From a virus, in the IMG/VR virus record IMGVR_UViG_3300034111_001103, positions 104,935 to 168,934 of that record: 64,000 bases of DNA; one strand, 5' to 3'. Below are positions 19,830-56,091 of this stretch, piece by piece. How positions within the stretch are numbered: position 1 is the stretch's first letter; every line of letters starts with the position of its first letter. The position numbers and the translations under genes were made by a program. The notes beneath the pieces are model-generated. The model was not told where the DNA came from and searched no databases. It saw nothing but the letters and a program-made list of their open reading frames with translations.

Positions 19830-22800
19830 TTATTGTATTTTTGGTCTACGAGCATCTAATAGTTTTCTATAACTAGGAGATATTTGTTTTACTATTTTAT
19901 TTATACCTTTTGCTGGAGTAGCATTTAATTGTTTATCTATAACTCTATTTGTTTTTAAAGCTTCATCATCTCCTGTTAAAGTAAAATATGTTTCTTTTAG
20001 AGGAGCATATATATAAGAATCTATTAAATTCCAGGCAGTTCCTATGGTTGGAATAGGTCCTTGTAAAAGCATTATTTTTAATTGTTCAGGGTTAAACACA
20101 AAAGATTGCTCTCTAAGGGATCTTGTAAGAACTACTATTACTATATCTAAAGTAGTACGATAGGTATCTTTTTCTTTGTTATCATCATCATCTCCTCCTA
20201 CTATAAAAGGTAATATAAATTTAGCTAGTAAAAATAGAGTTAAAAGAGACTTTGCTTCTTTTAAAGAATTTTCATATTGTCTAACATAAAATCTAATAAA
20301 TTCAGCTTCAGTTACTTTAAGATTTTTAGATGTTTTTTTGAAAAACTCTACTTGCATTACTTTATATCTTTCTTTAGCTATATCTTCTAAGGTTATAGTA
20401 TTGTTTTTATTGACACTTTTTCTAACTATTTCTGGTAATACGGAACTCATATTATGAAATACTAGGAAAGGTATATGTTTTCCATAACTAGCAAATAATA
20501 AATCAAGGGATAATCTCATTCTACCCCATTCTAATAAATTAGTGTTTTTGTTAACATTAAAAGGTTCTAACCTTGTAGCTATAGTCTCTCCTAACCATTT
20601 TTTATGTTGAGTTACAAACTTAGCCCACCATTTAGTCATAAAAGTATTAATATCTTGTTCACTGTAGTTACCTAGAGTTTTAGCTATAGTATCTTCTATG
20701 ATGGAAGTTAGGAGGATATTATTTTTAGCATCTAAATTTAAAGAGTTAGTACTCACTAAATTATAAAGACTATTTGTTTTTTTATACTCTTTTATTTCTT
20801 TATCTATCTTTTTAGCTAATTTAATTCTTTCTTCTTTAGGTAAATTATACCTATCTGGGTATTTATTGTTTATAAAATCTTCTACAGAGATAATATTATT
20901 ATTTTCATCTACAGTAGTACCATAGTATATACTAGCTATAATTTTACTTTGTATAATATGATCTCCAGCAGAATAAAGGAATAAAGAAGCTTTTGTTACA
21001 TTTATATATCTTTTTTCAGTAGTTTTATACTTATTAGTGGTATATACTTGATCAGACATTTCTACAAAAGGATTAAACATTTTATTCAGTTTTGTAAAGT
21101 TTTTTACATTTACAGCTGTGTTTTTATCTTTTATAGCAGGTAATATGCTATTTTGAAAATCACTACTATTATAATAAGTATTATTTGTTAAGGTAGAGTT
21201 AGTTAAACCTGCCACTAAATTGGTTAGAGGAGCTGTGTAAGTAAAACCTAAGTTAACTTGAGTAGTTAAACTATACAACCAATTAACAATATTTATTAAT
21301 GCCCCTTTAGGAGCTAATTTATCATTATATAAATAATAATCAATATGTCTATTTAAGTCTCTAAGAGTACCTTTATCTCCTTCAGTTATACCTAATTTTT
21401 TATTATCATCATAATAAGGCATACCACTATCATCTAAAGGTAAAGTAATATTTCCTTTAGAATTATCTGTGTTTATCTCTTTTGTTTTGTTGTTTTCTAC
21501 TATAGAAAGTAATTGAAATCTAGATTCATATTCTTTTAGTATTTTATACTCAATTACATGATGACCAAATACTGAGAATATATAAAATAAATCTTTGGAA
21601 AGACTCATATCATATAATACTTTTTCTTTGTTATATCTTTCTTGATATGCTTCTGGAGATTCTAAAGGTTTTCTCTTAAGGAAAAAAGTATTGTTATATT
21701 TACTTCTAATTTTCTTTTTATCTTTGTTAGTAAAAGGATCTGATATATTTTGAGAAGAATAAGTATTAGTTAAAAATCTATCATAAAAAGCATAGAATTT
21801 ACTTAAAATATAGTTTTTAAATAAACCAGCTTTTAGGTAAGTAAATATTTTAAAAGAATCATTTTTAACTTCTGGAAGATTGTTTAAAGATTCTATCATA
21901 CCTGAATCTTTAGCATCTGTTAAAATATCTTGTAATTGATTGTAAAAATCAAAAACTTCTTTATTTTCAGGTTTTAATAATTCTCTATATTCATCACTTA
22001 TCCATTTATCTTCATTAATTGTTTGAAATAATAATTCATTTTTATTAAAACCAGATGTTTGTAATGCTTTTGGATTAGTAAAAATATTATGTCTATATTC
22101 CCATTCTTCTAGTTTTTTTGCTTGTATATCTGCATTTTCAAAAGGATCTGCATCAAAAATATAATTATCTACTACTTCTTTATAAGCTTTGTAAGCTTCT
22201 TCATAAAGTTGAACATATTTTTTAATATCATAATTTTCTTTGATAAAGGGAGTTATATAAGCTCTATATTCTTTTGAAATTTGAGTTATTCTTTCTTTAG
22301 AACTTAATTGAATAGATACACCTTTAATAATATCTCTATGTTTTTTAATAGCTTCTTCTTTCTTATCAAAAAGAGTTTGAAAATATTCTTTTTTATATTT
22401 ATAGATTAGTCTTCTATTTACTTTATCATATACTTTAGAATAAACACCTTCTAAGTTAGTTTTATTGGTTTTTACCCAAGATTGTAAACCAACCATTAAT
22501 TTTTCCATTTTACTATCAAAAGATTGTACTTCTTGCTCTTTTAAATAGTTAATCATTTTTTGTAATCTAGTAAACATTTGTAAAGATAATTCTGGTCTAG
22601 AATATAAACTATAAGAATTAATCATTGTAGAAGATTTTACATCTATATCAGAAACATTATCATCCATTCCTAATATTGTACCTACTTGATTCATAGTTTT
22701 AGTAACAGCTACTGTTAATTTTTCTTCACTTATAGTAATTTTAGCTTTTACACTATTTATACTTTTAACCAATTCAGGAGACATATCTTTATGAATAGTT

Positions 22801-25800
22801 TCTAATTCTCCTAATGTAGGAAAAACTTTTAAGAAAGAACTTAAGAAATTATGATTTTCATACATTTTATCAAAATATAACCTAAGTTCTTGTTGTTGTT
22901 CTGGAATTAAATCTGATAAATTTTTATTATCTTTTAAGAAAGAAAAAGTTTTTTTAGATAATTCATTTATATTAAATAATTCATCTTCAAATACAGTTAT
23001 TAGTAGATTAGTAGTTTTTTTACTTCTTAATTCTTGTATTGTTTTATCAGTTCTTTGAATTTGATCTAGAAGTCTATCTCTATCTAAAGTAGTTGATTGT
23101 GCTCTTTGTTCTAAAGAGTGAGCTTTATAAGCCTCTAGTTTCTCTATTAAAGTATTTAGAAAAGAAATAGGTTTACCTGTAATGTCATCAAAAACTTCTT
23201 CATTTGAAGTAGATATTGGTAGTAAATAAGATTTAGCTTCTTTGTTAGGGTCAACATTTCCTATTTCTAGAGAAGTTAACCTAATGACTAAGTTTTTAGG
23301 GTCTTCAAAAGATTTACTTTTATTTATTTTTTTAGTAGTATTTTCTACTATAATAGGTATAGTTCGAGTTTGTCTAAAGTTTTTAACACCTACACTTAAT
23401 AATGCTTGTTTATATAAAGCTAATTGTTGTCTATGTACTTGTTTAGTTAAAGCATGAACATCTTCTCTTTTCATAGATTTACCTCCTATATTATAAGATA
23501 AATCCATTGATTTCCAATCTAATATATCTACTTGACCTGTAGGTAATATTGCTAAGAAATCTATAGTTCCTGCATATCCATATACTTCATTAACTATTTT
23601 AGTTTCTACCATAAATCTAGTATCTTTTGGATAAGATATTAGTCTTTCTTTTAGATGTTTTTCTAATATATTATAGTATTTTTCAGGAATAGCAATATTT
23701 TGGGGTCTATCTTCAGGAGTTACTTTTAAAAATCCTGTTTCTTTATCAATATGTCTTCCTATAATTTCTTCTATAGTAGAGTGAATTTCAGTACCTTTTT
23801 TCATTTTTTCTTCTTTAATGAAGGCAGTTATCTCTGTTTCATCTATAGTTTTATAGTTACCTATATTAGTTTTTATTTCATTTAGCACAGTACTAACTCT
23901 TTTTTTCATACCTGTACCAGTAACATAATAAGTAACTTCCTCTTCTTTACCTGTTTCAGGATTAATTTCTCTAGCTACTACAAGAGAAGTTTCTTCATTT
24001 ATTTTCTTTAGAAGATCAAAAATCTCTTTAGAGTCTTTTAGAGAAGGTATAATAAGATGATAATCTTCTACAGAGGCTACTCCAAATGCTTTCTTAGTTT
24101 TAGCCATAGTACTAGAAAATATATTTGCTTTACTCATTTTTTTAGAGTAAAAAACACCATCACCTAATTTATCTACATCTTCTTTATTAATAAGATTATC
24201 TTTAGTAACTATATCATTAGCAAATTCTTCAAAAAGATCTCTTTGATATGCAGGTATTTTAGAAAATAAGTTTGTAATAAAATCACTTACTTTATCCCAT
24301 AAAGCTCCAAATATATTTTTAGTATCATTTATATTAGTGTTATCTACTAGTTTTGCTACTAAAAGTTTTACCACAGCTTCTTTTTTAAGCTTAGCTATAT
24401 CAGGTTTACCTTCTTTAGTTTGATACTCAGGATCATCTTTATAGTTATCTAAAACTTCTTTGTAAATACCAAATTTCCATATCTCTGAAATCATTTTATC
24501 ATATAGAGTAGGATCTTTTTGTTCTATAATATTAATAATTAAGTGGATAACTTCTTCTGTAAAATTGTCCTCTGTTAATTCTCCTTTAGAGAAAGATATT
24601 AACTTTTGTAACATATCTACTTTAGCTAGAGTATCTTTAGGTAGATCAGCATCTCTTTCAATAGTAATACCTAAGATTTTTAGTATTTCTTGTAGTTTCT
24701 TTTTTACTTCAGATTCTTTAATTTCTACTAAGTCATCTGTAGTATTATCTTTTGAAGAAGTAACTTCTTGTTCTATTACTATAGGAGTATTTAATATTTT
24801 TCTTACTTCAGTATCAGTACTAGTATCAGTATTATTTTCATTATTTTGATTACTACCTTTATTAACAAAATCTTTAAATCTTTCTATGTCTTGTTTAGAA
24901 CCTAATATATGTATTTGTTCTGGTTCAAATACTATATAGTCTTTATATAAATCATAATCTGCAATAACAGAATCAATATTTCTATCAGTATATCCTTTAG
25001 CTTTTTCATAGGTCATATCAGAAAGAACTCTTGCTCTATCGTTGCTTATGTTTTTAAACCCTAAAAATTCTTTAACATTTAAAATAGCGTTTATTTTATT
25101 TTTACCATAATCTTTTATACGACTTAGATCGTTACTGAAAAAATAAGCATTAGCTGTGTTAGATATTTCCCTGTTAGGTATTTTTTCAATATTTTTAGAA
25201 AATGATTCAAATATTTTATCAGTACCATGATAAACAATATTTTTTACAACTGAATTTGGGAATATTTGATCTAAGTATTGAGAGTATTGTTGTAAAGCTT
25301 GTTGTTTTTGTTGTGGTGTTATTTGGGCAATGCTATTAACTTCATATAAATTAGTATTGTTAAATACAATAAAATCGCTTTTACCCCCTGTTACAAATGA
25401 TGGAGGTAATATTTCTATAGCATCGTACTGATTATAAACTTCTTTTAATTTTAATTGATTTTTAGAATACTCATCATAAGAAATAGTTTTTACATTTTTA
25501 ACATTTGCAAAAACAGTTAAAATTTTAGAAGAAGTTGCCACATGTGTTGTACTTTTATCTTGAGATAAATATATACCTTGATATTGAGGTTCTTGGTAAG
25601 GATGCTTATTATTAACCAATGATTTTCTTTTATCTCCTACATAAAGTGGTTGCTGTATTGCAGAATTAATAAAAGGATTTATTAAATTATTAGTATTAGC
25701 ATCTTTTACTTCTAATAATTTTTTATCTGCTTTTATTTTTTCTCCTAAAATTTCAAAATTATCAGTTTTTAAATTTGATAATAATACATTTAAACTAATT

Positions 25801-28800
25801 TTTTGTTTAGGAGAACCATATTCTATATCAAAATACGCATTACCTAATTCTTCTGGAGTTTTATAAAATTCTCCTGCATCATCTTCACTTTTAAAATATT
25901 CTCCATCAAAAATAAAAGTATAGTCTCCTATTTTTATAATGTCATTTTTTTTAGCCTGATATATTTTATTTAAAGCTACTTTATCAATTTCTAAAATAAG
26001 TTTTTTTAATTCATTTTCTTGCTCATTAATTTTTTTATTACTTTGAAACCCTAAAGCTTCATATACTTCATTAGCAAGATTACTATCACTTTCAAATAAT
26101 TCTTCTACTCCTAGTTTGATATTAGCTTCTTCTTGACTAAATAAACTATCTTGTTGATTAGTATTGTTTGTTGTATTGTTATTATTTGATTTTGTACCAT
26201 ATTTAACAAATCCACCTATAAGTTCATTTACTTCTTTTTCATTTAATATTTTACCTGTAAATTTAGTAATCCAAGTTTGAATTGAAGTTAAGAATTCTTT
26301 CCACCAAGAAGGTTTTGGTTTATCTATTAATGTTTCAGCCCATCTAGCTGCTAATTCCATTAATAATTTTATTTTACCTTCTTCACTTTGATTGGTAAAA
26401 CCATAATCCAACATTAAATTTTCTAAAGAAGTATGTCCTGTTCTTTTTAAAAGTTCAGGTAATTTTTCCATTAATTGTTTTTCAGCAGAAAATAAAACTT
26501 TTCCTAATTCTTGTACTCCTCCTAATTCTTTAGCCATTCTAATCATACCTCTATGAGCTACTTCATGTATACCTACTTTTGATGCTTCTTCTATAGGTGT
26601 ATTAGAAGCTACTACTACTACTTTGTCTGCTTTTGCATCATAATATCCTTGTATTTGATTAGTATTAGTTTTAGAAAATGGTAATTCATCTAGATCAAAA
26701 CCATCATAATCCATTTTATTTAAAATTTGTGCTAAAGTAAATGTAGGATTTTCTACTTTATATTTTTCTAGTATTGTTTGATTATATTTTACACTTCTTT
26801 CAAGTGCAGTAGCTTCTTGCTCTGCTTGTTTTTTTAATAATTTTTCTTCAGTTTCTTTATCTCTTTTTATAATATTATCTTCATATATTTTTTTTAAATC
26901 TATTCTCTCTTCTTTTATATTATGAGGTAAATATGAAAACACATCAGGTGTTTTTGTTACAGCCATTGTAACAAGCTCATTATAAAATGGTAAATTTTCA
27001 TCTATATGAGTTATATTATAAGGGGAAGATTCCACACCTATTCTTGCAATTTCTTCGTTATTTCTTAATTCAGGTTTTAATAGTTCAAAAAATTCTAAAT
27101 AATCAGGATTTTGTAAAACTTCTTCTACAGTATTTAAATTTTCAACTGCTGTGCTTCTTCTTTCTAAATCTTCTTCAAACAATCTTTCATTTTCTTCTCT
27201 TTCTCTTCTATATTCTCCTTCTATATCATCTCTATCATCATCTGGATAAAAATCAGCTGGATCCCAATCATAACCATATATATCAAAAACTTTTTCATCA
27301 GCATCAACCTTACCTGCTTCTTTAGCTTTTTTAGCCCTATTTAAAGAATCATTATTAGTATCTAAATTATGCTTTTCAAAGAAAGCTAATATATCATCAT
27401 AATGATCTATTGAAGAAGTTCCATTATTAGCTCTTGATGTGACTTCTTTTACTTTTCTTAATTCAGATTCTTCTAATAGGTTTTGTATTTTAATTTTTAA
27501 ATACTTTAATTCTGTTTGTAAATCTTCATTTATTCTTTTAATAGTGTTTTCTTCTTTGTTAAGAATTTCTTCTCTACTGTTTGCTGAAAGTTGATACTTA
27601 ACCCCCATAAATGGTTTTATAGTAGTAGTGAAAGTAGATGGTTGCCCTTTAATTCTATTTCTATCTACTATTGTATAAGACTCATTATTTTCTAAATCTT
27701 TAATTTTATTTTCAAGGTCTTGTATTTTTTCAGAATTATCTACTCCTGGATAAGCTTCAATTCCAGCAACAGTAACACCATCAACAATTAATAAATAGTT
27801 ATCATAATTCTCTACATAATGAGAAGCCATACCTGATGCTGTGCACCAAGTTGAAGGAGATAGTTTTCTAAGTAGTTCTACATTTACTTTAAATTGAGAA
27901 TTATTTTTCCAATTTTCTGGTTCTACATCCTCAAGTTCTTTTTTAAATTTTTCTATCTTGTAGTCTTCATTATGAGGATTTTTATCAACAGATACATTTT
28001 TTTTGTCCATAGAAAAAACTATAGCCTCATTTTCTGTTTTAAATCTTTGAATAATAGGTCCCATTACAACACTAACTGTCCAAGGATTATTTTTTATTTC
28101 TTCCCATTCAGCAATTTGTTTCTCTCTATTTTCTTTAAAATCTTCATAACTACTAAATCCTAAATAATTTGAGGAACTAGTTCTAGGAATATGCACCCAA
28201 TATCCTTTACCACTTGCAGAAGGTTCATGACCAACTGCATCAGATACTGTTTTTAATACTTCAGAATCATATAATTTACCTATTCTATTAAGTTCATGTG
28301 GTTTATTTACAGCTATACCATAAGTTTGTTGTAGTGCTACTGCTGATAATTGTAAAACAAACTTAGATCTTCTTTCAGGATTTCTTAAATGTTTAATAGC
28401 ATGTTTTAACATTAAATCTTTAAAAACAACAGGATAATTTTCTAATGCTTTTACCCATTTATCAAAACTTTTTTTAATGTCTTTATTTTTTAAAATAGGG
28501 TCTTCTAACTTTAATAGTTTGTTATAACTATCATTAGCCATTTTCTCTATTTGAGCTTCAGAAGTAATGCTTTTAATAATTTGACCTCTTGATGTATTAG
28601 CAGATAAGTTTATACCAAACCAATTAATTAGAAACGGATTTGTTATTCCTTTTTCTTCTAGTACATCTTTCATAGAAAGAAATAAGTCTTGTCTACCTAA
28701 TATATCTAAAGGCACATCTTGTACTACTGTAACAGCATTAGCTATTTCTTTAGGTAATTGATTTTTAATAACATTAGTTATTTCTTCTGTTGTAGAAATT

Positions 28801-29261
28801 TTAATATTAGTAGAAGTTCTTGTAAAAGGTTCATCATTCTCAAAATACTCTCTATTTTCTTGTATTTCTTGACTAAGAGTTTCTTTTGGTTTTGCTTCTT
28901 CTTTTTGTTTTGCTTCCTCTTTTACTTGTTTTTGAAGTTCGTATATTTCTTTAGAATCATCTGTTGCATTTATAAGATTTAATTGATTATTAGTAGGTTC
29001 TATTTTAACCATACCTCTACCAGTAGCATCAAATCCAAGATAAGCTACTTTTCCTATATCTTTATAACCATCATTAATAACAGTATTAATTGCATCAGCT
29101 ACTGTTTTAGCCACTCCTGTTGAGGTTTTTAAGTTTATTTTTTTAGAGGGACTATCTAAAATACTAATAAGACCAAAATTACCATCTTTTTTATAAAAAA
29201 ACCAAGGCTTATTATCTAATATTCCTTCAACTACTTTGTGTAATCCAATTGAACAACTCAT
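19830..29261 (-). CDS. Giant polyvalent virion-type protein (3143 aa)
   Basis: A multidomain protein. Near residue 472 is a STWCTASGMASHYVENYDNY segment. GYYDAKADKVVVVASN and H899-E-V-A-H903 form a zincin peptidase of the type seen in phage 'polyvalent' proteins. About 1200-1310 looks like a divergent ADP-ribosyltransferase-like domain (YQGIYLSQDKS...YDAIEILPP); a second, with VVYHGTDKIF (H1345), follows. About 1880-1945 is a RecB/Cas4-type PD-(D/E)XK nuclease (GTID1901, D1915-W-K1917, QxxxY). Long coiled coils lie at about 2020-2330, and hydrophobic segments near 3007-3025 (LLTLFLLAKFILPFIVGG). Such proteins are thought to be injected with phage DNA. It follows the RNA polymerase gene by 17 bases. 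Confidence 0.75.
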   Translation of the reverse strand: MSCSIGLHKVVEGILDNKPWFFYKKDGNFGLISILDSPSKKINLKTSTGVAKTVADAINTVINDGYKDIGKVAYLGFDATGRGMVKIEPTNNQLNLINATDDSKEIYELQKQVKEEAKQKEEAKPKETLSQEIQENREYFENDEPFTRTSTNIKISTTEEITNVIKNQLPKEIANAVTVVQDVPLDILGRQDLFLSMKDVLEEKGITNPFLINWFGINLSANTSRGQIIKSITSEAQIEKMANDSYNKLLKLEDPILKNKDIKKSFDKWVKALENYPVVFKDLMLKHAIKHLRNPERRSKFVLQLSAVALQQTYGIAVNKPHELNRIGKLYDSEVLKTVSDAVGHEPSASGKGYWVHIPRTSSSNYLGFSSYEDFKENREKQIAEWEEIKNNPWTVSVVMGPIIQRFKTENEAIVFSMDKKNVSVDKNPHNEDYKIEKFKKELEDVEPENWKNNSQFKVNVELLRKLSPSTWCTASGMASHYVENYDNYLLIVDGVTVAGIEAYPGVDNSEKIQDLENKIKDLENNESYTIVDRNRIKGQPSTFTTTIKPFMGVKYQLSANSREEILNKEENTIKRINEDLQTELKYLKIKIQNLLEESELRKVKEVTSRANNGTSSIDHYDDILAFFEKHNLDTNNDSLNRAKKAKEAGKVDADEKVFDIYGYDWDPADFYPDDDRDDIEGEYRREREENERLFEEDLERRSTAVENLNTVEEVLQNPDYLEFFELLKPELRNNEEIARIGVESSPYNITHIDENLPFYNELVTMAVTKTPDVFSYLPHNIKEERIDLKKIYEDNIIKRDKETEEKLLKKQAEQEATALERSVKYNQTILEKYKVENPTFTLAQILNKMDYDGFDLDELPFSKTNTNQIQGYYDAKADKVVVVASNTPIEEASKVGIHEVAHRGMIRMAKELGGVQELGKVLFSAEKQLMEKLPELLKRTGHTSLENLMLDYGFTNQSEEGKIKLLMELAARWAETLIDKPKPSWWKEFLTSIQTWITKFTGKILNEKEVNELIGGFVKYGTKSNNNNTTNNTNQQDSLFSQEEANIKLGVEELFESDSNLANEVYEALGFQSNKKINEQENELKKLILEIDKVALNKIYQAKKNDIIKIGDYTFIFDGEYFKSEDDAGEFYKTPEELGNAYFDIEYGSPKQKISLNVLLSNLKTDNFEILGEKIKADKKLLEVKDANTNNLINPFINSAIQQPLYVGDKRKSLVNNKHPYQEPQYQGIYLSQDKSTTHVATSSKILTVFANVKNVKTISYDEYSKNQLKLKEVYNQYDAIEILPPSFVTGGKSDFIVFNNTNLYEVNSIAQITPQQKQQALQQYSQYLDQIFPNSVVKNIVYHGTDKIFESFSKNIEKIPNREISNTANAYFFSNDLSRIKDYGKNKINAILNVKEFLGFKNISNDRARVLSDMTYEKAKGYTDRNIDSVIADYDLYKDYIVFEPEQIHILGSKQDIERFKDFVNKGSNQNNENNTDTSTDTEVRKILNTPIVIEQEVTSSKDNTTDDLVEIKESEVKKKLQEILKILGITIERDADLPKDTLAKVDMLQKLISFSKGELTEDNFTEEVIHLIINIIEQKDPTLYDKMISEIWKFGIYKEVLDNYKDDPEYQTKEGKPDIAKLKKEAVVKLLVAKLVDNTNINDTKNIFGALWDKVSDFITNLFSKIPAYQRDLFEEFANDIVTKDNLINKEDVDKLGDGVFYSKKMSKANIFSSTMAKTKKAFGVASVEDYHLIIPSLKDSKEIFDLLKKINEETSLVVAREINPETGKEEEVTYYVTGTGMKKRVSTVLNEIKTNIGNYKTIDETEITAFIKEEKMKKGTEIHSTIEEIIGRHIDKETGFLKVTPEDRPQNIAIPEKYYNILEKHLKERLISYPKDTRFMVETKIVNEVYGYAGTIDFLAILPTGQVDILDWKSMDLSYNIGGKSMKREDVHALTKQVHRQQLALYKQALLSVGVKNFRQTRTIPIIVENTTKKINKSKSFEDPKNLVIRLTSLEIGNVDPNKEAKSYLLPISTSNEEVFDDITGKPISFLNTLIEKLEAYKAHSLEQRAQSTTLDRDRLLDQIQRTDKTIQELRSKKTTNLLITVFEDELFNINELSKKTFSFLKDNKNLSDLIPEQQQELRLYFDKMYENHNFLSSFLKVFPTLGELETIHKDMSPELVKSINSVKAKITISEEKLTVAVTKTMNQVGTILGMDDNVSDIDVKSSTMINSYSLYSRPELSLQMFTRLQKMINYLKEQEVQSFDSKMEKLMVGLQSWVKTNKTNLEGVYSKVYDKVNRRLIYKYKKEYFQTLFDKKEEAIKKHRDIIKGVSIQLSSKERITQISKEYRAYITPFIKENYDIKKYVQLYEEAYKAYKEVVDNYIFDADPFENADIQAKKLEEWEYRHNIFTNPKALQTSGFNKNELLFQTINEDKWISDEYRELLKPENKEVFDFYNQLQDILTDAKDSGMIESLNNLPEVKNDSFKIFTYLKAGLFKNYILSKFYAFYDRFLTNTYSSQNISDPFTNKDKKKIRSKYNNTFFLKRKPLESPEAYQERYNKEKVLYDMSLSKDLFYIFSVFGHHVIEYKILKEYESRFQLLSIVENNKTKEINTDNSKGNITLPLDDSGMPYYDDNKKLGITEGDKGTLRDLNRHIDYYLYNDKLAPKGALINIVNWLYSLTTQVNLGFTYTAPLTNLVAGLTNSTLTNNTYYNSSDFQNSILPAIKDKNTAVNVKNFTKLNKMFNPFVEMSDQVYTTNKYKTTEKRYINVTKASLFLYSAGDHIIQSKIIASIYYGTTVDENNNIISVEDFINNKYPDRYNLPKEERIKLAKKIDKEIKEYKKTNSLYNLVSTNSLNLDAKNNILLTSIIEDTIAKTLGNYSEQDINTFMTKWWAKFVTQHKKWLGETIATRLEPFNVNKNTNLLEWGRMRLSLDLLFASYGKHIPFLVFHNMSSVLPEIVRKSVNKNNTITLEDIAKERYKVMQVEFFKKTSKNLKVTEAEFIRFYVRQYENSLKEAKSLLTLFLLAKFILPFIVGGDDDDNKEKDTYRTTLDIVIVVLTRSLREQSFVFNPEQLKIMLLQGPIPTIGTAWNLIDSYIYAPLKETYFTLTGDDEALKTNRVIDKQLNATPAKGINKIVKQISPSYRKLLDARRPKIQ

Positions 29262-29278
29262 TTATATTATATTATTTT

Positions 29279-32200
29279 TTATTGTAAACATTTAGCATCT
29301 TTTTGAGATAAATTTGTATTTAAGCCTAACTCTTCAGAAGTTATATTACTTTCTTGTGATTGAGTAGGTTGGTTTTGAGTAAAAGGTAATTTTTGTTGAT
29401 TATTTAGTTTATCTAACATATTTTGTAAAGATACTAAAAAATCTTGAGATTTAAAAGAATATCTTGATTTTAATTCAGAATCCCAATATATTGGCATAGT
29501 ATCCTTCATATTTCTTAGAAGGTTTTCATTCATATTAGGTCTTAATGTTTGAACACTTTCATTGTTTATGTAAGAAGGTTTGTAATCTGTATTTGAGTTG
29601 TAATATTCAGATGTTTCTCTGTTTCCATATTTTCTTACAGGAAAATAAGTAACTAGGAAACCTTTGTTATCTTTAGTTGCTACTAAAGGAACATCTTTTT
29701 CTTGAGTTATTGGATTAGGAACTTCTAATCTTTTATATAATACAATTTCATTAAAAGAAAAATCTTTTCTTTTAACCATAGCATCTTTTTCAACTTTAGT
29801 GTAATACTTACCAGTTTTAGGATTTATAGCTTGTTTCTTTACTTTAATGTAAGGTTTTTGTGTTATTTCTTTAGATGAAGCTATTTGTATGATATTTACT
29901 GTTGCTTCTAAATCACCTTTTGTAACTTTTTGTTGTCTATAGATATTTTTAGTTCTATTTTCATAAACAGGAGCTTGATATATAGGAACTAATTTGTTAT
30001 CATACCATTTACTTTGATAATAATTATTAACAAAGTCTTCTATATATTGTTGTTGTAGTTCTGGAGATAGTTTTTCTCTAAATTGAGTTAACACCTGAGC
30101 CATTATATTTTCTATAGCATCTGCTGGAATTAATGTATTGTAAGAATTAGGAGTATTTGTTACACCATTTTGTGCTATAACCCCTATTATTATACTTTTA
30201 GCTAAGTTTTCTGTAGTTGCTTTTTTAGAAAGATTGTAAAGATCAGCAGTCATTTGATTAGACTCATTACTATCTTCAGGTTTTCTTAAAAGTCTTGATT
30301 GGAAATGTTTGTCATCTTTGTTTAGATAAACAGGATTTACACCAATAATATTAGAAAGAAACATAGAACTACCTTTATAGGTTTCTTGAGCTTGTCTTAT
30401 AGTATTAGCTATGTTTGTGTCTTTATTTAAGAAAAGAGTAGGATAATAACTTGATATTGTTTGATCTACAAGGGGACCATAAGTTATTGGTAATGTATGT
30501 AATAGATAAGTAACAAGATCTTTTCTTATATTTTTTAGTTCTTTTTCTATATCATCAATACTTTTTTTAGACTGTAATACACTATTCATTAATTTGTTTA
30601 GAAAAGGTCTTATTACAGGATTTTCAGATAAATACAATTCAGAAAAAGATTTAAGAATAGTATTTTTAATTTCATATAAATTACCTATATGGGTAGTTTT
30701 ATATAATTCAAACATTGTTTTACCTAAAGAAGATTCTAATGCATCTTTTAGTTTACTAAGTTTTACTCTAGTGGAATCAAAAGATCTATCTAAAGTAGTA
30801 TCTACATTTACACCTTGTGAGAGAGTTAAAATATCTTGAGCTACTTGTTCTAATTGTCTAAATTGTACTAGTAGTGTAGCTTGATTTATTGCAAAATCAG
30901 GATTTTTATCACTAAGAATAAATTCTTCTAATTCTTGATCTGTGTAGTTTTCTCTATCTAATGTTATCATTCTACCTTCTTTATCTGTAGGTAGTTTATA
31001 TTTGACTATTAATTGCTCTTGTATTTCTTTTTTACTTTTAGGGTTTCTTTTGTTAAGTCTAACAAGTGCTCCTTGATTTTGTATTAAAAGGTTAACATAA
31101 TCTATTATAATAGGTTGATTAAAGAATCTTACTAAAGTAGAAAGAGGAATACCTAGTCTTACTCCAGCTATATAAGTACCAGCAGTAGTTAAGTTACCAT
31201 TAGCATCAAAGATATAAGGTTTGTTAGCTATATCTACAAAAGCATCTAGAAACATAGATATTAAGTCACTTATTCTTTCACCTTTAGAATTTAATTCTTG
31301 TGATAAAGAATAAATAGTGTTAGCATCATTTACAGGAACATTAGTATTGAAAAGAAAAGGAAATTCTACAGGTATATTAGAAACAATAGTTTGAGATATA
31401 GCATTTAATGTTTGATTAGAAGCAGCAATACCAACACCCTCTTTCCCTACTAAGAAAGAATATCTTTTTACTATATTATGTAATCTAGATAATATACTTG
31501 TATGATAAGCTTTTTTCTTTTGGTTTCTTTCTTTCAGTTCTTTGATTTTATTAGCTTCATTCTCAAGAGGATCTGCACTGTTGGGTTTAACTAATTGTTT
31601 AAAGTTTTCTTCTAATTGTACTATTTCTCTTAGATTATCTATATAATAATTATCTAAAGCTTTTTTAGAGTTTTGTTCATAAATAGATAATTTTTTAAAT
31701 TCTTCAAAAGTTGGTATAGATTTTTTTTCTTCTTCAGAATTTTGTTTAGCAATTTCTAGATTTTCATCATAAGATTTTGTTAAATCTATTCTTGAATCTG
31801 AAAGATCTTCTCCAAATATATCAGAAATAAGTTTAGTCGAATCTGTATCTAAGGAAGCTTTAAAATAATTATAACCTTCTTTACTATTTAAAAACTCATA
31901 AAAGGTTTGAGCTTTTTGTAATTTTTTATATCTTTCTTCTACAGTACTATTAGTATTGTTTAAGAAATTGATTTTTTCTAACTTTCCTGTTTGTTTGTTG
32001 AATTTATGATTATAAAGATAAAGATTAAGTTTATCAATATCAAAATCCGAACCTGCTTTACCTACTATTTCTGAAGGAACCATTATAGCATCTCCATAAG
32101 AAGGGTCTAAAAACCCTACTATTTCAAAATGTTCTACAGAATTGAGAGCTTGAGTAGGAATCCTAAAACCTATACCTTTTAAAAGTTCTTTATCTATTTT

Positions 32201-35200
32201 AGAAAAGTCAAAATTTTCTAATCCTAATAATTCTTTATATCTCCAAGGTAGTTTTACTTGACAAATTCTTTTACCATCTTCATTTTTGTAGAATTTAAGT
32301 TCTCCAGAATATAATTTTTTAGTTTTAGAGTCTTTCTTTCTAGGGTTTCTTTCAAAAAGAGTAGAAGCTATTTGAGGAAATTGTCCTCCAAATATCTTAG
32401 GAGTAAGAATAGCTTTATTTATAATAGAGTTTATGATATTTTCTACTGTATCTGTTCCAGATATAATAGTATCAAAGGGTAATATAAATTGTCCTTGATC
32501 ATTAGTTCTTATAAGAGATTTAACATTTAAAGGTTTATCTCTGTTGACTAATTCTTGTTGAATTTTTTCTTCAAACTTTTTATAATTGTTAAAAGTTAAT
32601 ACTTTTCTATTTGTATTAGGATCTATAGTTACTTCTCCCCCAAAGTCTTTGTAGAATTGATTTATAGCTTTAGTTTCCATAGCAGCAAGAATCTCAAAAT
32701 TCTTTCTAACTAGATTATAATGATTAGAAGCAGTTCTTTTTTCTTCTTCTGAAAGAGAATCCCATTCAGTTTTTAAATCTTCTTCTGATAGATGTGAGTT
32801 TGTTTTCCTAAAATCTTTAGGAACTCCATTAGACATTAAGTTTAATATACCTAATTTTGTTAACTGAGTACCTAGAGTAGTAGACATTTTTTGTGTTATA
32901 GTTTCTACTTGAATACCAAACCATTCCCAACTTAATACTTTATGTTTAATATTTAAATTAGGTGTACCATTAGGTTTATATAACTCTTCAGTATCTTTAG
33001 TTTGACCTACTTTGTTAGCAGATTCAAAAGTTATATAAGTTGTTTGATTTGTATAATGTTTTATGTAGAAATCTTTAGCATTAGAGAATTTTACTTCTCC
33101 TGTTGCTTCATCTATATATCTTATATGACTCCATATTAAAGGAGCTACTGAATATTTATGTTGTTCAAAAGTACCATCAGATTTTAAACCATTATAAGCA
33201 GGTTTTAATATATTCATATTTGGAAGAGGTAAAGGGTTTAATCCTTGTTCTTCTCTTACTTTATTTATAGCTTGTATTGTAAAGAAAGGATTACCTTTAG
33301 CTATTATTTTTTTATCTAAAGCTCTCAGGGCATCAGCTCTTTTTTTGTCTTTTTTAGCTTTAGGGTATAAATCCATATCACTTCTACATAAAGCATCATC
33401 ATATTGTTTGAAGGCTTCATCTACTTCAGTCCAAGAGTTAGCTCTTCTTTTTATTTGAGAATATCCCCCTAAAAAAGCTAGTGCTTGGGCATCAGGTTCT
33501 TTAAGTTCTGAGTAAGGTTTAGCTTCTTCTTCTCCTAAAATTTCTTTTAATGCTTCATATTCTTCAGACACTACTACAGGATCTATATATACTTGTACAT
33601 TAAATTCCTCTTGATGATTAACATATCCTAAATCTCCAGGAAATAATTCTACAGATTCTGTAGATTCTTGTCCTATGGTATCTTCTTCTATAAAAGCTAC
33701 ATTACTATTTTTATTATGATAATCATTAAAATATTGTGCAGAATATACTACTTTTTGAGAACCTGAAGTAGTTTGTTTTATTCTCTTAAAAGGATCTTTC
33801 CATTCATTCGGGTTTAAAAAGAATAAGTTAAATTGTTCAAATATATTTATCATATATTTAACTTCTTCTTCATAAACAATACTAGCTATTTGCTCTTTAG
33901 AAATATTTTTAAATTTATTAAAAGTACCTTCTACAGTTTTTTCTTCTTTTCCTTCTGGAGTAAGTAATATTCTGTATTCATCTTTTTTACCTTCTATAGG
34001 AACTATAAGATTATTTATCCATAGTCTATTTTCTGTTTCTTTAGCTCTTTCTTTGAAGAAAGTTAAAAGGTCTTTTTCTATATCTTCTTTATTTTTTAAA
34101 AGAATAGTTTCTATACCTTCTGAAAGATCTATATTAGATAAAGTCTTTTCTGAAAGTATTTCTTTAAAGAGACCTAATTGGTTTGTGTTTTGTTTTAAAT
34201 TAGACTCTCTTTGAGCTTTTGCTACTTCAGCTTTAAAGTAATTAATAAATATAGGTAAGTAATAAATTTTATCACTAGCAGAACTTAAAACACTTTTAGG
34301 ATAAGTAATTACCCATTCATTCTTAGTATCTGCTGGTACTATAATAGAATATATATTATTTATACCATTAGCAAAATCTAGAGCTAATCTTCCTGATAAA
34401 GATAATTTATTTGAAGCATCAGTATTATCAGATTGTCTCTCTTCTATACCTTCAGTTACACCTACAGTTATATTACCTTTTTTTGTACCTGAAGGACTAA
34501 ATAATTCAGAATGCAACATAGTTTGAGCATAATGAGGTAGTCTATCTATTAATTCTCCTTTAGTAGATATTGAATTAAATATCTTATTAATACTTGTAAT
34601 ATATGAAGGTAAAGTTATATTTTGAACCATTTCCCCCTCTATATTTTTATGTTGAGTAGTTTCATATATAGGGTTGTATTTATTATAAAGCTGAGCTAAT
34701 TTATCAAACTTACCTTTAAATTCTCTAGAATCTGTTATTATATTATCAATATTGCCTTCTTTTTCACTTAAAGTATAATTTACTATACTACTTAGTAATT
34801 TTAAAATTTCATCTTCTTCTGTAGAAGTGTATTTTGTATACTTTAATCTTATATCTATACCTAATTCATCTTTTGCAAATTGTGCATATTGATCTAATGT
34901 TTTAAGTGTAGGTATTGGTTTTCCTAAATTAAATACATAATGTCCTTGACTAACAGATACTTTTTTATTAGATTTTAGTTTTTCATACCACTCATTTTTA
35001 AGTTTGTTAATACCATCTTTTTCATTTATAACAAAATTAACAGAAGAACCATCTTCATTAACTATTAGTTTGTAGTAAGTATTTTTAAAATTACTAAAGG
35101 CTATAAAGAAATCATTTCTTAATTCTACAGTAGCTTTATCTACTACTTCTTCATCTAGTTTTAATTTATTTATTAATGGTAAAAATTTAGCATCAACTTT

Positions 35201-38200
35201 AGTAAGATCATACAACATATCCATCATTTCAGTATAATTTGTAGCAGGAGCTAAAGCATACATAAGTTGAACAAATGTTTTATTATAATCTACTAAAGTA
35301 GGTAGGAAAAGAGAATTAGGTCTAGTTATAACTCTTCTAGTAACAGGGGAATAATATTGATCTTTTAGTGTAGCTACTAAAAGTTTTATTTTTAGATTTG
35401 CATTAAGTTTTCTATTAATAGTTAATGTATTTACAAATTGATCATTCTTATCTTTGTTTTCTTTATTTGGGTTATTTTCTTCTAATTCCTCATCTTCAAA
35501 TTCTATTTTATATTTACCTAAGTATTTCTTATTAGCTTTAACAAAATAATCCCAATTATCTAGAATATAAAGCATAGAAGTTTGAACATCATGAAATTTT
35601 TCATTAGTTTCTTCTAAGGTTGCATTATGTACAGCAGTATAATATTTACCAGGTTCTTTAAAGAAATTTCTTCTTTCTTCAGGACTAGACATAATATGTT
35701 CAAAAAAAGCACGAACTTCATCATAATAATTGTCTATATTAATGTCAGACTTTAACAAATTTCCTAAAGAATCTCCTTTATCTGTTATAAATTGAAACAA
35801 TAAAGCAGTAATAGATTTCATTGAATCATTATAAAACAAAGGGTTTGTTAGTTCTATATCAGCAAGTTTATTTTCTTTTGTAAGAGAATTAAGATTATAT
35901 TTTAATCTTAGCTTTCTATATTTCCCAGAAGATAGGTTTTTAAAAGTACTTTCTATATTACCTAAAAATAAATCAAGTATTATGTTATATAATTGTTTAA
36001 ACCAAGAATTTTTATAATATTCTCCATCCCACTTTAACTTACCTTTAGATAAATGGTATCTCATATATTCATCAGCAAGTTCTTCTTTAATTTGAAAATC
36101 AGTAGCTTCTGAATATTTAACAGATTTTTTAGTTTGATAATCTATAAAAGAACCTTTTCTATTTCTAAATTCTTCTCTTAATCTTTCAATTCTTTTAGGA
36201 GATAAAAAGTGTTTTTGTAAAGCTTCATAAGCTTCATGTTGAATAGTACCTCTTTTAGCTAAAGTAGAAAGTAAAATAGCTTTATCTTTTAATTGTCCCC
36301 AAGCAACATTATCTATTAAACCTTCTACAGATTGTAAAGGTATTTGAGGTAAAACATTATCTAAATATTCTTCAGCTTTCTCTATATCTTCTACTTCATA
36401 ATCAGTTTCTTCAGAATCAACTAATTTAAAATCTTTTATATTTTCTGAAGTTGTAGATATATCACTTTCATTAAAACCTATATTATTAGAGTTTGTTTCT
36501 TCTACTTTTTCTTCAGAAACTACAGGTTCTTTTTCTACTATAGGTTCTATTTTCTTAAAACTATAACTTTCTTTTGCAAAAACACCTAATTCAATAATAT
36601 TTGATTTTATTAACTCTTTAATTACTTCATTAGATAATTTAGAATTAAATGTTTTATCAATAGTTACAGTTTTTTCTTCCCCAACAGTTTTAATAGTATA
36701 ATTTACTATTAAGTCTTTATTTGTAAGTTGATAAGAACCATCTTCACTTGAAAAAGGTATATCTTCATTAGCAGATTCAAAAGATTCTGTATCAACATAA
36801 GCATATTTAGTATCATCTTTAAATACCATCATTCTTCCAAACTTATTAGGGGTAGTTTCAGAAGAAGGATTTAGTTTTATTTTTAAAGGTATTTCATCAT
36901 TACTTCTTTTATTACCATTAGGAAGGATATCAGAAATAAGATAATCTTGATAAGTAGCCCATTTTCTTTCTAATAACTTTCCTTTTTCTAGATAATATTC
37001 TATAAACTCATTCATCATACCATTAGAGTCTATATTATGAAATATCATTCTATTATTTAACTCATTTTTTATTTTTGGTAAACCTTTAGTGTTAAGGGGT
37101 AATAAAGATGTTTTTGGTATCTGAATACTAAATGATGGTGAAGTTTTAAAAAATATTTGATTGTTACCTAAAGGAGTTTCTTGTTTTACAGTTTCACCAT
37201 TTTTATCAGTATATTCAGGATTTCTGATATATAGAATTTTAGATAAAAAGTCAAATAATTTTTTATTTTCTTTTGAAGTTTCTATCTTTTCTTCTTTATC
37301 TTGAGATAATGATAGTTTTTTGTTTTCTCCTATTTTTGTAAGAACAGCCATCACAACATCTATGTCTTCTGGAGATATTCTTCTATTTTCTAGAAATTCT
37401 AAATGTGTACCTACTTTTACAAAAGGTCTTCCTTTAGGGAAACTTTTTTCTTGTTTGTTATGTACTATTACAAAATTACCTTCTTTATTTTTTTCAGGAA
37501 ATATAACTATTTGAGTATTAGGTTCTTTAATATCTAAACTTTGAGTAATAGGAAAAGATTTTTTAGCATCTTCTACAGGTCTTCCTCTAGTAACATAAAG
37601 AATAGGAAAAGTGATATTTTTTTTCTTACCTTTTTTTATAGTTTCAATAATATTATTTCTTCTTGCAATATGTTCATTTTGAAAATTTTCTGGAGTTTTT
37701 TCTGTACTATTAGAATTTTCATGATAGTTTTCCTCACCATTATTCCAAGTAAGTTTAGGTAATCTCATAGAAGTATAAATAACTGTATCAGGGTTTATAT
37801 CTTTAAGATATTTACCATCTACACCTATAAATTTTATTTGACCATTTCCTAATTTTTTTACTACTACTAGTTTAATATCTTTACTTTCTTTTGAAGGAAA
37901 TATTATACCACTTAAACCATAATTTGAAGCATTATCTTCAGTTAGTGCTAAAAGTTCATATTGTCTAATATCTTCTACATTATTTAAAAATGTTTGTAGT
38001 CTAGTAACTTGAGGGTTATCTTTTAAACTTTCTTTTCCAGTTTGTCCAATAGTATGTCCACTTGTTGTAGTAATAAATAATTGTTCTATACCTAATTTAT
38101 CATCCTCAGATTCAATTCTTTTAATATCTTTTGTAGGATCATCTGTTTCTTCAGAAGATTCTGTAATTTCTATTATAGGGGTTTCTTGAGTAGTAGATGT

Positions 38201-41200
38201 AGGTTGTTCTTTAGATAGTAGGGATTGTATTTGATTTTTAAAATTACTTATTTGATTATTATATCTGTTTTCTACTTCTGATATTTTTTTGTTTACTTCT
38301 GCTAATTGTTGTTTTAGTTGGTCAAGTTTTGTGTTTTCTGATTTAGAATAGTAAACACCTTCAGAAACAAATCCTTCTGCCACATAGTCAATAGGATTTT
38401 CAATCATGTTTTTTAAAATACCTAAAGCCTCATCATAAGCATTTGTAGATATTCCTAAAATATCTAAAATATAATCAAAAAACCTTTCTACAAAATTTAA
38501 TTCTTTGTTTTTTAAAGCATCTGTAAAACCATCATGTGTAAGTTCAGCAAGTATTTCATGTTCATTTTTTGAACCATAAAAATCTTTTGTGTTAGAATCA
38601 CTCTGTAACTCTCTCAATAAATTAGAAAGTTTTTTAGCAGCATTAATTTGTTTTGGGGTAAGTTTATTTAAAACTTCTGTTTTGTTGTATTTAACAGCAT
38701 CTATTATGTAACTTGTAACACCGTGCACTAACTCATGTACAATAGTCCTTGCTGCTACATCAGGACTTGTTAATAAACTTGCACGATTAGCTACTTGCCC
38801 ATTAGAATATTCACCTTGATGTTCTTTTGCAATATTGTTACCTTTACCCTCAAGAAGAAATTTTGTAGGTATTTTTAATTTTTCTGCGACATTTTTTATT
38901 AAATTCCATATAAACTTAGTTTGTTTACTACCATGTTTTTGCACAAAAGCATCTAACTCATTTGCATAATAAACTTTATCTAAGTCTATCCCTAGTTCTT
39001 CAGCAGATAATTTACTACGTTCATTTATACTTTCATCTACTGCTTCCTGATTTTCATTTAGTTTATCTACTCTTGTACTGTTATCTTCAAAATATTCTAA
39101 TTCAGAAGGTCTTTTGTAAGTAGTGCTATTTCTTTTTTCTAATTCTTGTATTATTTCTTCAAATGTAAAATCAGTAGTTTCTACAAAACGGTTTAATACC
39201 CTTATATCTTTATCTGATAAATTGTTTAATTGTGAAAAACTATCAACTAATGCTACAATTTGGTTTTTAAAACTTTTTTGTAAAAATCTTATCTTTTTAT
39301 TAAGTTTATTAAACAAGGATATTTTATTGTCAGGAATAGAACCATCTTCATTTCTAAGATTTACAATTTCTTTTTTTGCATCTTCAATTTCTTGCGTACT
39401 AGTTTCCGAACCTTTAGTATCTTTCTCAATTTCAGCAATCTCATTTTCTAATCTTTCTTTTTCTTCAATTAAAGGTTGTAGCTCTTTTGCTTTAGCTTTT
39501 TCTGCTTTTTCTATTTGTTTTTCTAATTCTTGTCTTCTTCTTTCTATATCAGCTTCTTTAGTTTCTATAGTATTATCTACCTGATCAGTAGTAGTTTCTT
39601 CTTGTTCTATTCCTAAATCTAATAATATATCTTCATCAGAAGTTAAGACTTTTTCAGATACTAAAGAAGAGTTTATTTTAGTTTGTTTAGGAGTATTATC
39701 TTTTACTAGATCTTTGAGTTTTTTTAACCTAGAGTTTTTATTATTGTTTTGGTAACTTTCTAAATCGGATAAAAGAACTTGTTGATCTTTAAGTTTTCCG
39801 TCTTCTTTATATCTAAACATTACAAATCCTTTACCATCTTTAGGTCTGTACACTAATCTACCTTTAACAACTGTTTCCTTTCCCTTAATATCTACAGGAA
39901 AAGTAAAAATAGTATTTTTGTGATCATAAACAAATCCTTTAGGATGGTTTAATTCTCTGTATTTTTTTAGAGAAGATTTTGGTGTAAATCTTTTATTATC
40001 AAAGTAATTAGCTGGTACTTCTTTTTCTATATTATCTTCTAGTATTTTTAATTTACCATTAGGTAATTGTTCTAAGATAGTAACATCTTTAGTTTCAAAT
40101 ACTTTAGCTTTTTCTTTAGATTTAACAAAATTATAGACATGTAAAACTTCTCCTTTGTTATAAAGTTTGTTTTTTATTTGAATTTTATCTTCAGGAACAG
40201 GTTCTATATTATCTATAGCTTGAGCTTCAGTATTTATATTAGTTATTCTTTCTTGAAGTTTAGATTTTAATTCATCTATTCTTTTTATATCATCAGTATA
40301 AAGTTTTCTATCAGGATTCTTTTCAGAAGAAAACATTTCATTTGTAAACTCAAATTGTTTTTTGTATTCATCTAATTTTTTAATAACACCTTCCAACACA
40401 GGAATATTTATTGATTCTGTATCTAGTAATGCAAAAAATTCTGGTAAATGTTTAGAAAGAGCTTTAGTGGGATCTGCTTGAAATTCATCTCTAAATGTAA
40501 GAGCTTTCTTTTTAAGAACATCTCTTTCTTCATTTAACTGATTTATTCTATCAAAAGTTTCTTCTGAAGGAGTACTTACTTGAGATAGTTTAAATAATTG
40601 ATGAGTTAAGTTATAAAATTCATCTTCTTCTTTAGGATTTAATAAATATGGAGTATAAGGAAGAGAATCTTTTCTAGTCATTTTAACATCTGAATAATAA
40701 TCTTCTACTTTATCTACTACTTCTTTTCTATTTTTAGCTTCAGGAAATAGTTTTAATAAAGTTTTATCATCTACAGTATTTAAATATTGTCTAGCTAATA
40801 GTAGATATTGTTCAGGATTTTGATAAATTTCTGAAGTAAAGTTTGCTAAACCACTTTTAGCAGTATGAGATAAACCTCTATAACCACCCATACCCATTGT
40901 AGGTAACATAGCTAAAGTAGTATTCATTATGGTACTTAGAGTTTCTTCATAAGTTAGTCTATCATCTGCTTTGAATTTTAAATTATTTCTCTCTACACTT
41001 TTATCAAAAGGGGTATTGGCAACATTTCCTACTAATTCTTCTATACTTTCTTCCATAGGAACTTTTACTAAAGAACTAAATAAAGTTTCTACAGTAGATT
41101 TCATTACAGGAGAAATCATAGATTTACCTAATGATTGTCTTAGAAATTGTTTTAATACAAAATCTTTTATAGGTTGTTTTGAAAGAGATTTAAATAAATC

Positions 41201-55155: not shown

Positions 55156-55173
55156 TTTTGTTTTTTAAACTTT

Positions 55174-56091
55174 TTATAAATGATAGTTCTGGATATTATA
55201 ACTATCCCATCTAGCCCTAGTATTTCTTGTTAATCTTATCATATCCTGGAAGCTTGGGAATTTAGCATATATTTTTGCTTCAGTCAAATATTTATCTTTT
55301 TCTACTTGATAGTATTTTATCTTGTTTTCTATATTAACATCATCTCCATTAACCCAAGAGTTTACTAGGAACCAATGTGTAAGATGCATTTCTAATGCTT
55401 TCTGTATAATAGCATCATTTGGTATTAGAGGTAAACCTGTTTCCATATCCATAGGAAATCTCCAATACTTTAAGTAGATAGTAGCATTTTTTAGATTAGA
55501 TTGTAAGTAATAAGCACCTCCTTGTCTGTTTATAGAGATTTCATAAGGAGAAGAAGAAAATAAATTCTTACAATGTTTGTTACAAATAGTCCCTATACTT
55601 TTTTTATTGTTATATCGCAAGAGGTGAAGATTAGAATATTGAAGTACATTATCTGCACCTGTTACATATTCTGTTATGGTTACTCTGTCTAGTACTTTAT
55701 CTTTTATATCTGTGTTTACACAATATCCTTGAGAAGATGAAGTTGCACAAGTTTGATCATTTAAAATTGTTTCACAAGTTTTTTCTGTAAAGAATACATA
55801 TTTACCTTGGAAATAATTATTTATAGCTGTAGTAGAACTATCACATAACCAAGCACTATCTAACATATAGAAATCACAAGGAAGTTCTACTCTATTTTTT
55901 TCTAAAAGGATAATACCTTCTTTAAACTCAAATACAGCTAATCCCATTTGTTGTATAAACCATTTAATCTCAGGATAAAATCTACTTGAATCAAGTGCTC
56001 CATTATTAACATAGCTAGATAAGTTCTCTTCAATCCTTGCAAATAAACTATCACAACTTACAAGATCAAAATTTGACTCTGGTGTATTCAT
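55174..56091 (-). CDS. Presumed tail ring protein (305 aa)
   Basis: A soluble mixed-fold protein with an N-terminal helical part (DSLFARIEENLSSYVNNGAL) and a middle rich in cysteine and beta strands (CDSSTTAINNYFQGKYVFF). In crAss-like phages a protein of similar size directly precedes the muzzle gene and forms a ring in the tail barrel, and this gene has the same place and size. No domain can be seen that proves it. Its start codon overlaps the stop of the 212-aa gene by one base. Confidence 0.5.
   Translation of the reverse strand: MNTPESNFDLVSCDSLFARIEENLSSYVNNGALDSSRFYPEIKWFIQQMGLAVFEFKEGIILLEKNRVELPCDFYMLDSAWLCDSSTTAINNYFQGKYVFFTEKTCETILNDQTCATSSSQGYCVNTDIKDKVLDRVTITEYVTGADNVLQYSNLHLLRYNNKKSIGTICNKHCKNLFSSSPYEISINRQGGAYYLQSNLKNATIYLKYWRFPMDMETGLPLIPNDAIIQKALEMHLTHWFLVNSWVNGDDVNIENKIKYYQVEKDKYLTEAKIYAKFPSFQDMIRLTRNTRARWDSYNIQNYHL

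What the first reader, a model, noticed from the sequence alone, without database searches (positions are those of the whole stretch)
19830..29261. A polyvalent protein that stacks protease, ADP-ribosyltransferase-like and nuclease segments
One 3143-residue gene appears to contain a zincin (H899), two ART-like segments (about 1200-1310 and VVYHGT at 1345), a RecB-type PD-(D/E)XK nuclease (D1901, D1915, K1917), coiled coils and C-terminal membrane segments. Polyvalent proteins are known to be injected and to counter host defence. Together with the polymerase it may be an injected takeover complex. The QxxxY motif after DWK supports an active nuclease that degrades or trims DNA.
Basis: partly seen in the sequence, partly recalled or inferred. 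Interest (0 to 1): 0.75.

Follow-up and report, generated by a model that had tools for sequence, protein, structure and literature searches.

The report
Phage cargo protein with swappable enzymes
A relative of the gut virus crAssphage encodes a giant protein, probably carried in the virus particle and injected with its RNA polymerase, whose rear half is conserved while its front half is a slot where different enzymes are swapped between otherwise near-identical viruses.

Summary
The gene (minus strand, 3143 aa) holds a zincin-type motif domain (H899/H903/E969), an ADP-ribosyltransferase that passes Pfam's ART-PolyVal cut-off when excised and models as a PARP-type fold (H1345), a weaker ART-like copy without the histidine (V1208), and a RecB/Cas4-type PD-(D/E)XK nuclease (H1827, E1886, D1901, D1915, K1917, Q1946, Y1950).

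The zincin-ART half is a cassette. A sister phage 98.6% identical over residues 1470-3143 and 91% over 21-159 has residues 160-1469 replaced by an unrelated 746-aa cassette. In 42 pairs of relatives with 75-99.7% core identity, the N-terminal slot aligns in 8, the last 300 residues in 42. Slots elsewhere hold ART, GNAT or histidine-phosphatase domains.

Best reading: co-injected virion cargo with a conserved chassis and an exchangeable effector slot. Injection of this protein, enzyme activities and counter-defence are inferred. It is a new variant of known kinds (polyvalent proteins, crassvirus cargo).

The parts
19830..29261 (-). whole gene, 3143 aa polyvalent gp49-like cargo protein
   Evidence: open reading frame; residue n starts at window 29261-3(n-1)
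28785..29261 (-). N-terminal leader, residues 1-159, kept in the sister phage; residues 1-150 found directly before the core in L155, L208, L222
24855..28784 (-). exchangeable cassette, residues 160-1469; replaced by an unrelated 746-aa cassette in sister phage L151/L003
27102..28784 (-). cassette part of unknown function, residues 160-720 (WCTA motif at 472); 47-59% identical segments in G005
26913..27059 (-). DUF4116-like stretch, residues 735-783
   Evidence: Pfam PF13475 E 3.2e-5, 23.8 bits, just under the 24.9 cut-off
26007..26705 (-). zincin-like metallopeptidase domain, residues 853-1085 (HEVAH 899-903, E969)
   Evidence: motif conserved 7 of 7; modelled helices around it with pLDDT mostly above 85
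25344..25667 (-). ART1, degenerate ART-like segment, residues 1199-1306, His replaced by V1208
24825..25292 (-). ART2, ART-PolyVal-type ADP-ribosyltransferase, residues 1324-1479, H1345
24177..24719 (-). start of the gp49-like core: conserved EExxH...E domain, residues 1515-1695 (E1569, E1570, H1573, E1628)
23037..23864 (-). RecB/Cas4-type PD-(D/E)XK nuclease, residues 1800-2075
19833..23021 (-). C-terminal part of the gp49-like core, residues 2081-3143
   Evidence: collinear with cr108_1 gp052 and crAss001 gp49
20190..20255 (-). predicted hydrophobic helix followed by an acidic run, residues 3003-3024
   Evidence: hydropathy; similar helix in the last 350 aa of 38 of 53 relatives, shuffled control 199 of 1060
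29279..43432 (-). adjacent giant gene (4717 aa) with the crAss-like virion RNA polymerase; DFDID at residue 3796
49330..57444 (-). crassvirus tail genes (muzzle-like 49330-55155, Ring_1 55174-56091, Ring_2 56719-57444) that identify the virus type

Best explanation
This is the crAss001-gp49-type virion cargo protein of an environmental crassvirus-like phage, fused at its N terminus to an exchangeable cassette of effector enzymes. Steps: (1) the protein is packaged in the capsid with the giant RNA polymerase and ejected ahead of or with the DNA (inferred from gp49 homology and gene order); (2) the gp49 core (EExxH domain, nuclease, helical region with one membrane helix) is the conserved chassis (conservation shown; role inferred); (3) the cassette brings host-facing activities: the zincin cuts this polyprotein or host proteins, ART2 ADP-ribosylates host macromolecules, and cassettes are traded by recombination between phages (trading shown by sequence; activities inferred); (4) the RecB/Cas4-type nuclease processes or degrades DNA in the new host (active-site residues shown, role inferred).
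For: gp49 homology: a profile of 54 cores finds cr108_1 gp052 (E 2.3e-114) and, collinearly in four stretches, crAss001 gp49 (E 1.5e-34) among 31 proteins; gp49 is in crAss001 virions. Polymerase neighbour; 73 of 80 core ORFs of the A3-scan relatives have a DFDxD ORF in the same locus. Cassette: sister phage with 98.6% (1470-3143) and 91% (21-159) identity and a replaced middle; 34 of 42 pairs with 75-99.7% core identity have slots that do not align over 70%, while the C-terminal 300 aa align in 42 of 42; core start at a median of residue 128, ours 1515, in 56 non-redundant cores. Slot contents: ART (L206), GNAT (L214), histidine phosphatase (L153), all above Pfam cut-offs. The same ART sits in RNA polymerase ORFs (20 of 83 ART ORFs with GxD[FY]DxDK, not deduplicated) and in gp49 cores (16 of 83). 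Catalytic motifs.
Against: No proteomics for this phage. The MS-detected block of phi4:1, a cultured relative by the muzzle gene, offers no convincing match: the phi17:2 equivalents were in the set searched and reached at best E 0.16 by BLAST and nothing by profile. The sister's leader lies on only about 400 bases at a contig end, so a chimeric assembly cannot be excluded for that single case. Pairs are not independent (about seven groups of relatives). crAss001 gp49 lacks the nuclease. No fold hit passed Foldseek E 0.001.
Confidence: 0.7

Rival explanations
1. The cassette is a maturation or packaging device, not an effector set: the zincin cuts the precursor during virion assembly and the N-terminal half never enters the host.
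For: Iyer et al. 2017 note that P1 DdrB, with such a metallopeptidase, is processed before packaging (PMC5512222, passages). The zincin lies inside the cassette, before the core.
Against: Only 3 of 56 non-redundant cores have an HExxH before the core, so processing by this domain is not a general need; ART2 keeps its His and a PARP-type fold, which packaging would not need.
Confidence: 0.15
2. The protein acts against rival phages (superinfection exclusion) or against the host chromosome, with nuclease and ART as offensive enzymes, rather than against host defence.
For: RecB/Cas4-type nuclease with complete motifs; high turnover of slot contents also fits phage-phage conflict.
Against: The nuclease is in the conserved core, not in the slot, is missing in crAss001 gp49 and altered at D1915 in three relatives; no direct data either way.
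Confidence: 0.25
3. Slot variation is neutral domain decay and gene-fusion noise in giant proteins; ART1 is a pseudo-domain and ART2 is on the way out.
For: ART1 lacks the His (V1208); 6 of the ART relatives carry R in place of H1345.
Against: H1345 is kept in 70 of 77 non-gap ART sequences; the frame stays open in swapped versions; slots repeatedly hold recognisable enzyme domains.
Confidence: 0.1

Closest known systems
Polyvalent proteins of phages and conjugative elements (Iyer et al. 2017, PMC5512222)
   Same: zincin-like peptidase, ART and other unrelated domains in one giant, probably delivered protein; N4-type vRNAPs fused to zincin and ART are described there (passages)
   Different: here the domains sit in front of the crassvirus gp49 core and beside a crAss-type RNA polymerase; 'crAss' does not occur in that paper's main text; cassette exchange between near-identical phages was measured here
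crAss001 gp49, RNA-polymerase-associated cargo protein (PMC10172136)
   Same: collinear homology over most of the core; place in the cargo block next to the polymerase
   Different: crAss001 gp49 has no nuclease and no zincin-ART cassette
PDDEXK domain in large transcription-block proteins of crAss-like phages (Yutin et al. 2021, PMC7886860)
   Same: a PD-(D/E)XK domain inside one of the large proteins of the block (passages)
   Different: that text does not mention zincin or ADP-ribosyl domains (0 occurrences); figures not seen
ART-PolyVal, Pfam PF18760
   Same: ART2 reaches 36.4 bits against a cut-off of 31.2
   Different: ART1 was not matched by it and lacks the His

Membership tests
crAss001 gp49-like RNA-polymerase-associated cargo | sequence homology over the core | tested here: met
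   profile E 1.5e-34 to crAss001 gp49 and 2.3e-114 to cr108_1 gp052 among 31 proteins, collinear
crAss001 gp49-like RNA-polymerase-associated cargo | gene next to the crAss-like RNA polymerase | tested here: met
   adjacent gene matches 6VR4, E 3.6e-27; crAss001 gp49 and gp50 are adjacent
crAss001 gp49-like RNA-polymerase-associated cargo | present in virions and ejected | not testable with these tools
   presence known for crAss001 gp49 (mass spectrometry), not for this phage
Polyvalent proteins | two or more unrelated enzymatic domains in one polypeptide | tested here: met
   zincin motif domain, ART2, nuclease
Polyvalent proteins | delivery into the host with the DNA | not testable with these tools
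   inferred from gp49 homology only
ART-PolyVal (PF18760) | score above the curated cut-off | tested here: met
   36.4 vs 31.2 bits for the excised segment; 23.7 in the full protein
ART-PolyVal (PF18760) | H-Y-D active site (as described in PMC5512222) | tested here: inconclusive
   H1345 present; the strand-2 column holds F1374 with Y1373 beside it (that column: Y 21, F 9 of 40 rows); the Asp could not be placed with certainty
ART-PolyVal (PF18760), segment ART1 | catalytic histidine | tested here: not met
   V1208 at that column
RecB/Cas4-type PD-(D/E)XK nuclease | H-(E)-D-(D/E)xK-QxxxY motif set | tested here: met
   69-73 of 73 sequences; all present in the window protein
RecB/Cas4-type PD-(D/E)XK nuclease | fold | tested here: met
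   MGME1 Z 10.2 (rmsd 3.8, 178 aligned), AddAB 9.7, Cas4 8.6 among the top rows
Zincin metallopeptidase (residues 853-1085) | HExxH and downstream Glu | tested here: met
   H899, E900, H903, E969 in 7 of 7 sequences
Zincin metallopeptidase (residues 853-1085) | zincin fold | tested here: inconclusive
   the fold search list was filled by the ART domain
Zincin metallopeptidase (EExxH domain, residues 1515-1695) | HExxH | tested here: not met
   EExxH in 80 of 81 sequences, HExxH in 1; profile comparison with the N-terminal zincin gives probability 4.6%

The most novel reading that the evidence does not exclude
The N terminus of the crassvirus gp49 cargo protein is a payload bay: a defined slot between a short leader that begins M-x-C and the conserved core, into which recombination loads and unloads different effector enzymes (ART, GNAT, histidine phosphatase, zincins, unknowns), so that near-identical phages inject different effector sets, much as polymorphic toxins exchange their tips. 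The same ART module also loads into the RNA polymerase proteins.
Probability: 0.5. Interest if true: 0.78.

Novelty: new variant of a known kind. Interest (0 to 1): 0.6.

Why it matters
Crassviruses are among the commonest phages, yet what they inject besides RNA polymerase, and how they cope with host defence in the first minutes, is little known. If the gp49 N terminus is a swappable effector slot, comparing slots between near-identical phages gives a ready list of candidate early effectors, and host or defence differences that follow slot type become directly testable.

Tried and rejected
Nucleotide and protein searches of the phage collection found nothing; only the C-terminal half gave weak hits, to cr108_1 (E 0.03) and to annotated phage exonucleases (E 0.5) over the nuclease. 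Virion evidence was first sought from phi4:1/phi17:2, whose block is MS-detected, but the phi17:2 large proteins show no convincing homology to this one, so that route was dropped in favour of crAss001 gp49. The idea that the EExxH domain is a degenerate zincin rests on the motif, its spacing and one relative with HEISH; profile comparison did not support it, so I do not claim it. ART1 relatives were sought twice without success (83 had no positive control). Comparisons with solved-structure sequences: none for the core, the window protein or crAss001 gp49. PMC10172136 says a homologue of gp49 has a crystal structure; here 6VR4 matched gp50 and gp49 matched nothing. GC content does not mark the cassette as foreign: 0.24-0.28 throughout. 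A first structure alignment, A6, was replaced by A7 because ART leaders were placed at about residue 1050. PADLOC gave one weak hit (DpdI, E 0.0058), NCBIfam none for the window pieces. The paper searches for prior description showed, by listing, no report of ART or zincin in crassvirus cargo; figures, supplements and most subscription papers were not seen.

Rows dropped before counts: relatives under 60% coverage (cz 118 to 117, nuclease 112 to 107, ART 119 to 110 hits), then sequences above 90% identity (81, 73 and 82 left, the window's included). Only 50 of the 80 muzzle loci were searched. The search for related loci kept the best 80 of 200 and 80 of 127 relatives. In one search pairs with a slot under 25 aa were skipped; their number was not printed.

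Full report
What is there. The window belongs to a 168,934-base virus record with crassvirus tail genes: CrAss_Ring_1 and CrAss_Ring_2 above Pfam cut-offs and a muzzle-like protein matching Cellulophaga phi17:2, Leptolyngbya phage Lbo-JY46 and csAssE-Sib. The reported gene is the minus-strand ORF 19830-29261, 3143 aa. Seventeen bases upstream of its start ends a 4717-aa gene with GSDFDIDK, DFDID at residue 3796, which has matches in 139 phage records, crAss001 'putative RNA polymerase' among them, and matches the solved crAss-like RNA polymerase 6VR4 at E 3.6e-27.

The rear half is a known cargo family. BLAST against crassvirus large proteins found residues 1782-2297 similar to cr108_1 gp052 (E 4e-7) with further collinear stretches, and 1522-1686 similar to crAss001 gp49 (E 0.002). 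Searching 50 of 80 related environmental phage records gave core matches in 12 of 50. A profile of 54 cores then found cr108_1 gp052 at E 2.3e-114 and crAss001 gp49 at E 1.5e-34 among 31 proteins, the latter in four collinear stretches that skip the nuclease. crAss001 gp49 is one of three RNA-polymerase-associated proteins detected by mass spectrometry in purified virions (PMC10172136, passages read). This is the main support for delivery, and it is by homology only.

Domains. Nuclease, residues 1800-2075: in 73 non-redundant sequences, the window's included, H1827 is kept in 69, E1886 in 70, D1901 in 73, D1915 in 70, K1917 in 72, Q1946 in 70, Y1950 in 71. The model of residues 1500-2080 has pLDDT above 90 over most of the nuclease; the best solved matches are MGME1 (Z 10.2), AddAB (9.7) and Cas4 (8.6), with AdnAB, RecE, Dna2 and Exo5 below (Foldseek E 6.5e-3 at best). 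Three relatives in the alignment have lost the DxK aspartate. ART2, residues 1324-1479: PF18760 36.4 bits when excised; H1345 kept in 70 of 77 non-gap sequences, R in 6; model closest to tankyrase and PARP (Z 8.1, rmsd 2.3 over 94 residues; Foldseek E 3.5e-3). An anti-CRISPR structure (6kyf; from memory AcrIF11, itself an ART) is also in that Foldseek list at E 0.05. ART1, residues 1199-1306: in register with ART2 (9.1 bits; hhalign probability 94.6%, with 0.1% for a zincin control) but with V1208 in place of the histidine and no relatives found. Zincin, 853-1085: HEVAH and E969 in 7 of 7 sequences. EExxH domain, 1515-1695: E1570, H1573 and E1628 in 81 of 81 and E1569 in 80 of 81 sequences; function unknown. 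One hydrophobic helix 3003-3024 before an acidic run.

The front half is a cassette. A contig 98.6% identical over residues 1470-3143 and 91% over 21-159 carries 746 unrelated residues in place of residues 160-1469, in frame. The replacement includes its own HEPFH and ends in GIEELFEND, the leader that often precedes this ART: 38 of 54 occurrences of that leader are followed by YLDxIF within 80 residues. Conversely G005 keeps segments of residues 155-1101 at 47-59% identity in front of a protein with no match to our core. Leader residues 1-150 occur directly before the core in L155, L208 and L222. In 56 non-redundant cores found without regard to the slot, the window's own contig included, the core begins at a median of residue 128 (range 31-1515; ours is the longest); 5 of 56 carry the ART and 3 of 56 an HExxH before the core. 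In 42 pairs with 75-99.7% core identity the slots align over at least 70% in 8 and fail in 34, while the C-terminal 300 residues align in 42 of 42. These pairs fall into about seven groups, so they are not independent. Named slot contents above Pfam cut-offs: ART-PolyVal in L206, GNAT in L214, histidine phosphatase in L153; of 18 slot sequences scanned, 3 matched ART-PolyVal, 1 His_Phos_1, 1 DUF6782 and 1 YwqH-like at E 0.01. L187 shows the ART signature by eye but not in Pfam at E 0.05. The same ART occurs in 83 ORFs of the ART scan, 16 with the gp49 core and 20 with an RNA-polymerase-type GxD[FY]DxDK (counted by eye, not deduplicated).

How it probably works. Packaged with the polymerase and ejected into the host, the core serves the polymerase or DNA entry, the nuclease acts on DNA, and the cassette supplies host-facing enzymes that are traded under conflict. 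Shown: homology, motifs, folds at moderate confidence, cassette exchange. Inferred: packaging, ejection, activities, targets.

Comparison with what is known. Polyvalent proteins with zincin and ART, including fusions to N4-type polymerases, were described by Iyer et al. 2017 (passages), and virion-packaged ARTs by the 2022 survey PMC9503650 (passages; 'crass' has 0 occurrences there). [quoted passage not shown] 2021 (passages). I found no report of ART or zincin cassettes in crassvirus cargo, nor of slot exchange, in the searches named under Tried and rejected; figures and supplements were not seen. Hence a new variant of a known kind.

Noticed in passing
window 29244-29261 (start of the gene) and L150-L309: 68 of 69 non-redundant 5'-complete core proteins have a cysteine in residues 2-7 (M-x-C type start), and so do 37 of 49 ART-bearing ORFs without the core, against 65 of 273 other ORFs of at least 150 aa without one tail family. 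It may be a cargo tag; unexplained.
   Followed up: partly
window 24177-24719: An EExxH...E pattern is kept in 80-81 of 81 sequences; one relative (G037) has HEISH. Function unknown.
   Followed up: partly
L153:7083-7982: A histidine phosphatase domain (Pfam His_Phos_1, 105.4 bits) sits in the N-terminal slot of a gp49-like protein.
   Followed up: no
   Followed up: partly
L004:17907-19058 and L004:302-880: phi17:2 carries separate genes annotated poly(ADP-ribose) polymerase and macro domain, another NAD/ADP-ribose pair in a related phage.
   Followed up: no
window 29279-43432: The polymerase gene is unusually long (4717 aa) and has its own HELVH motif (read by eye); its rear part corresponds to two separate genes in cr108_1 (2967 and 798 aa).
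   Followed up: no
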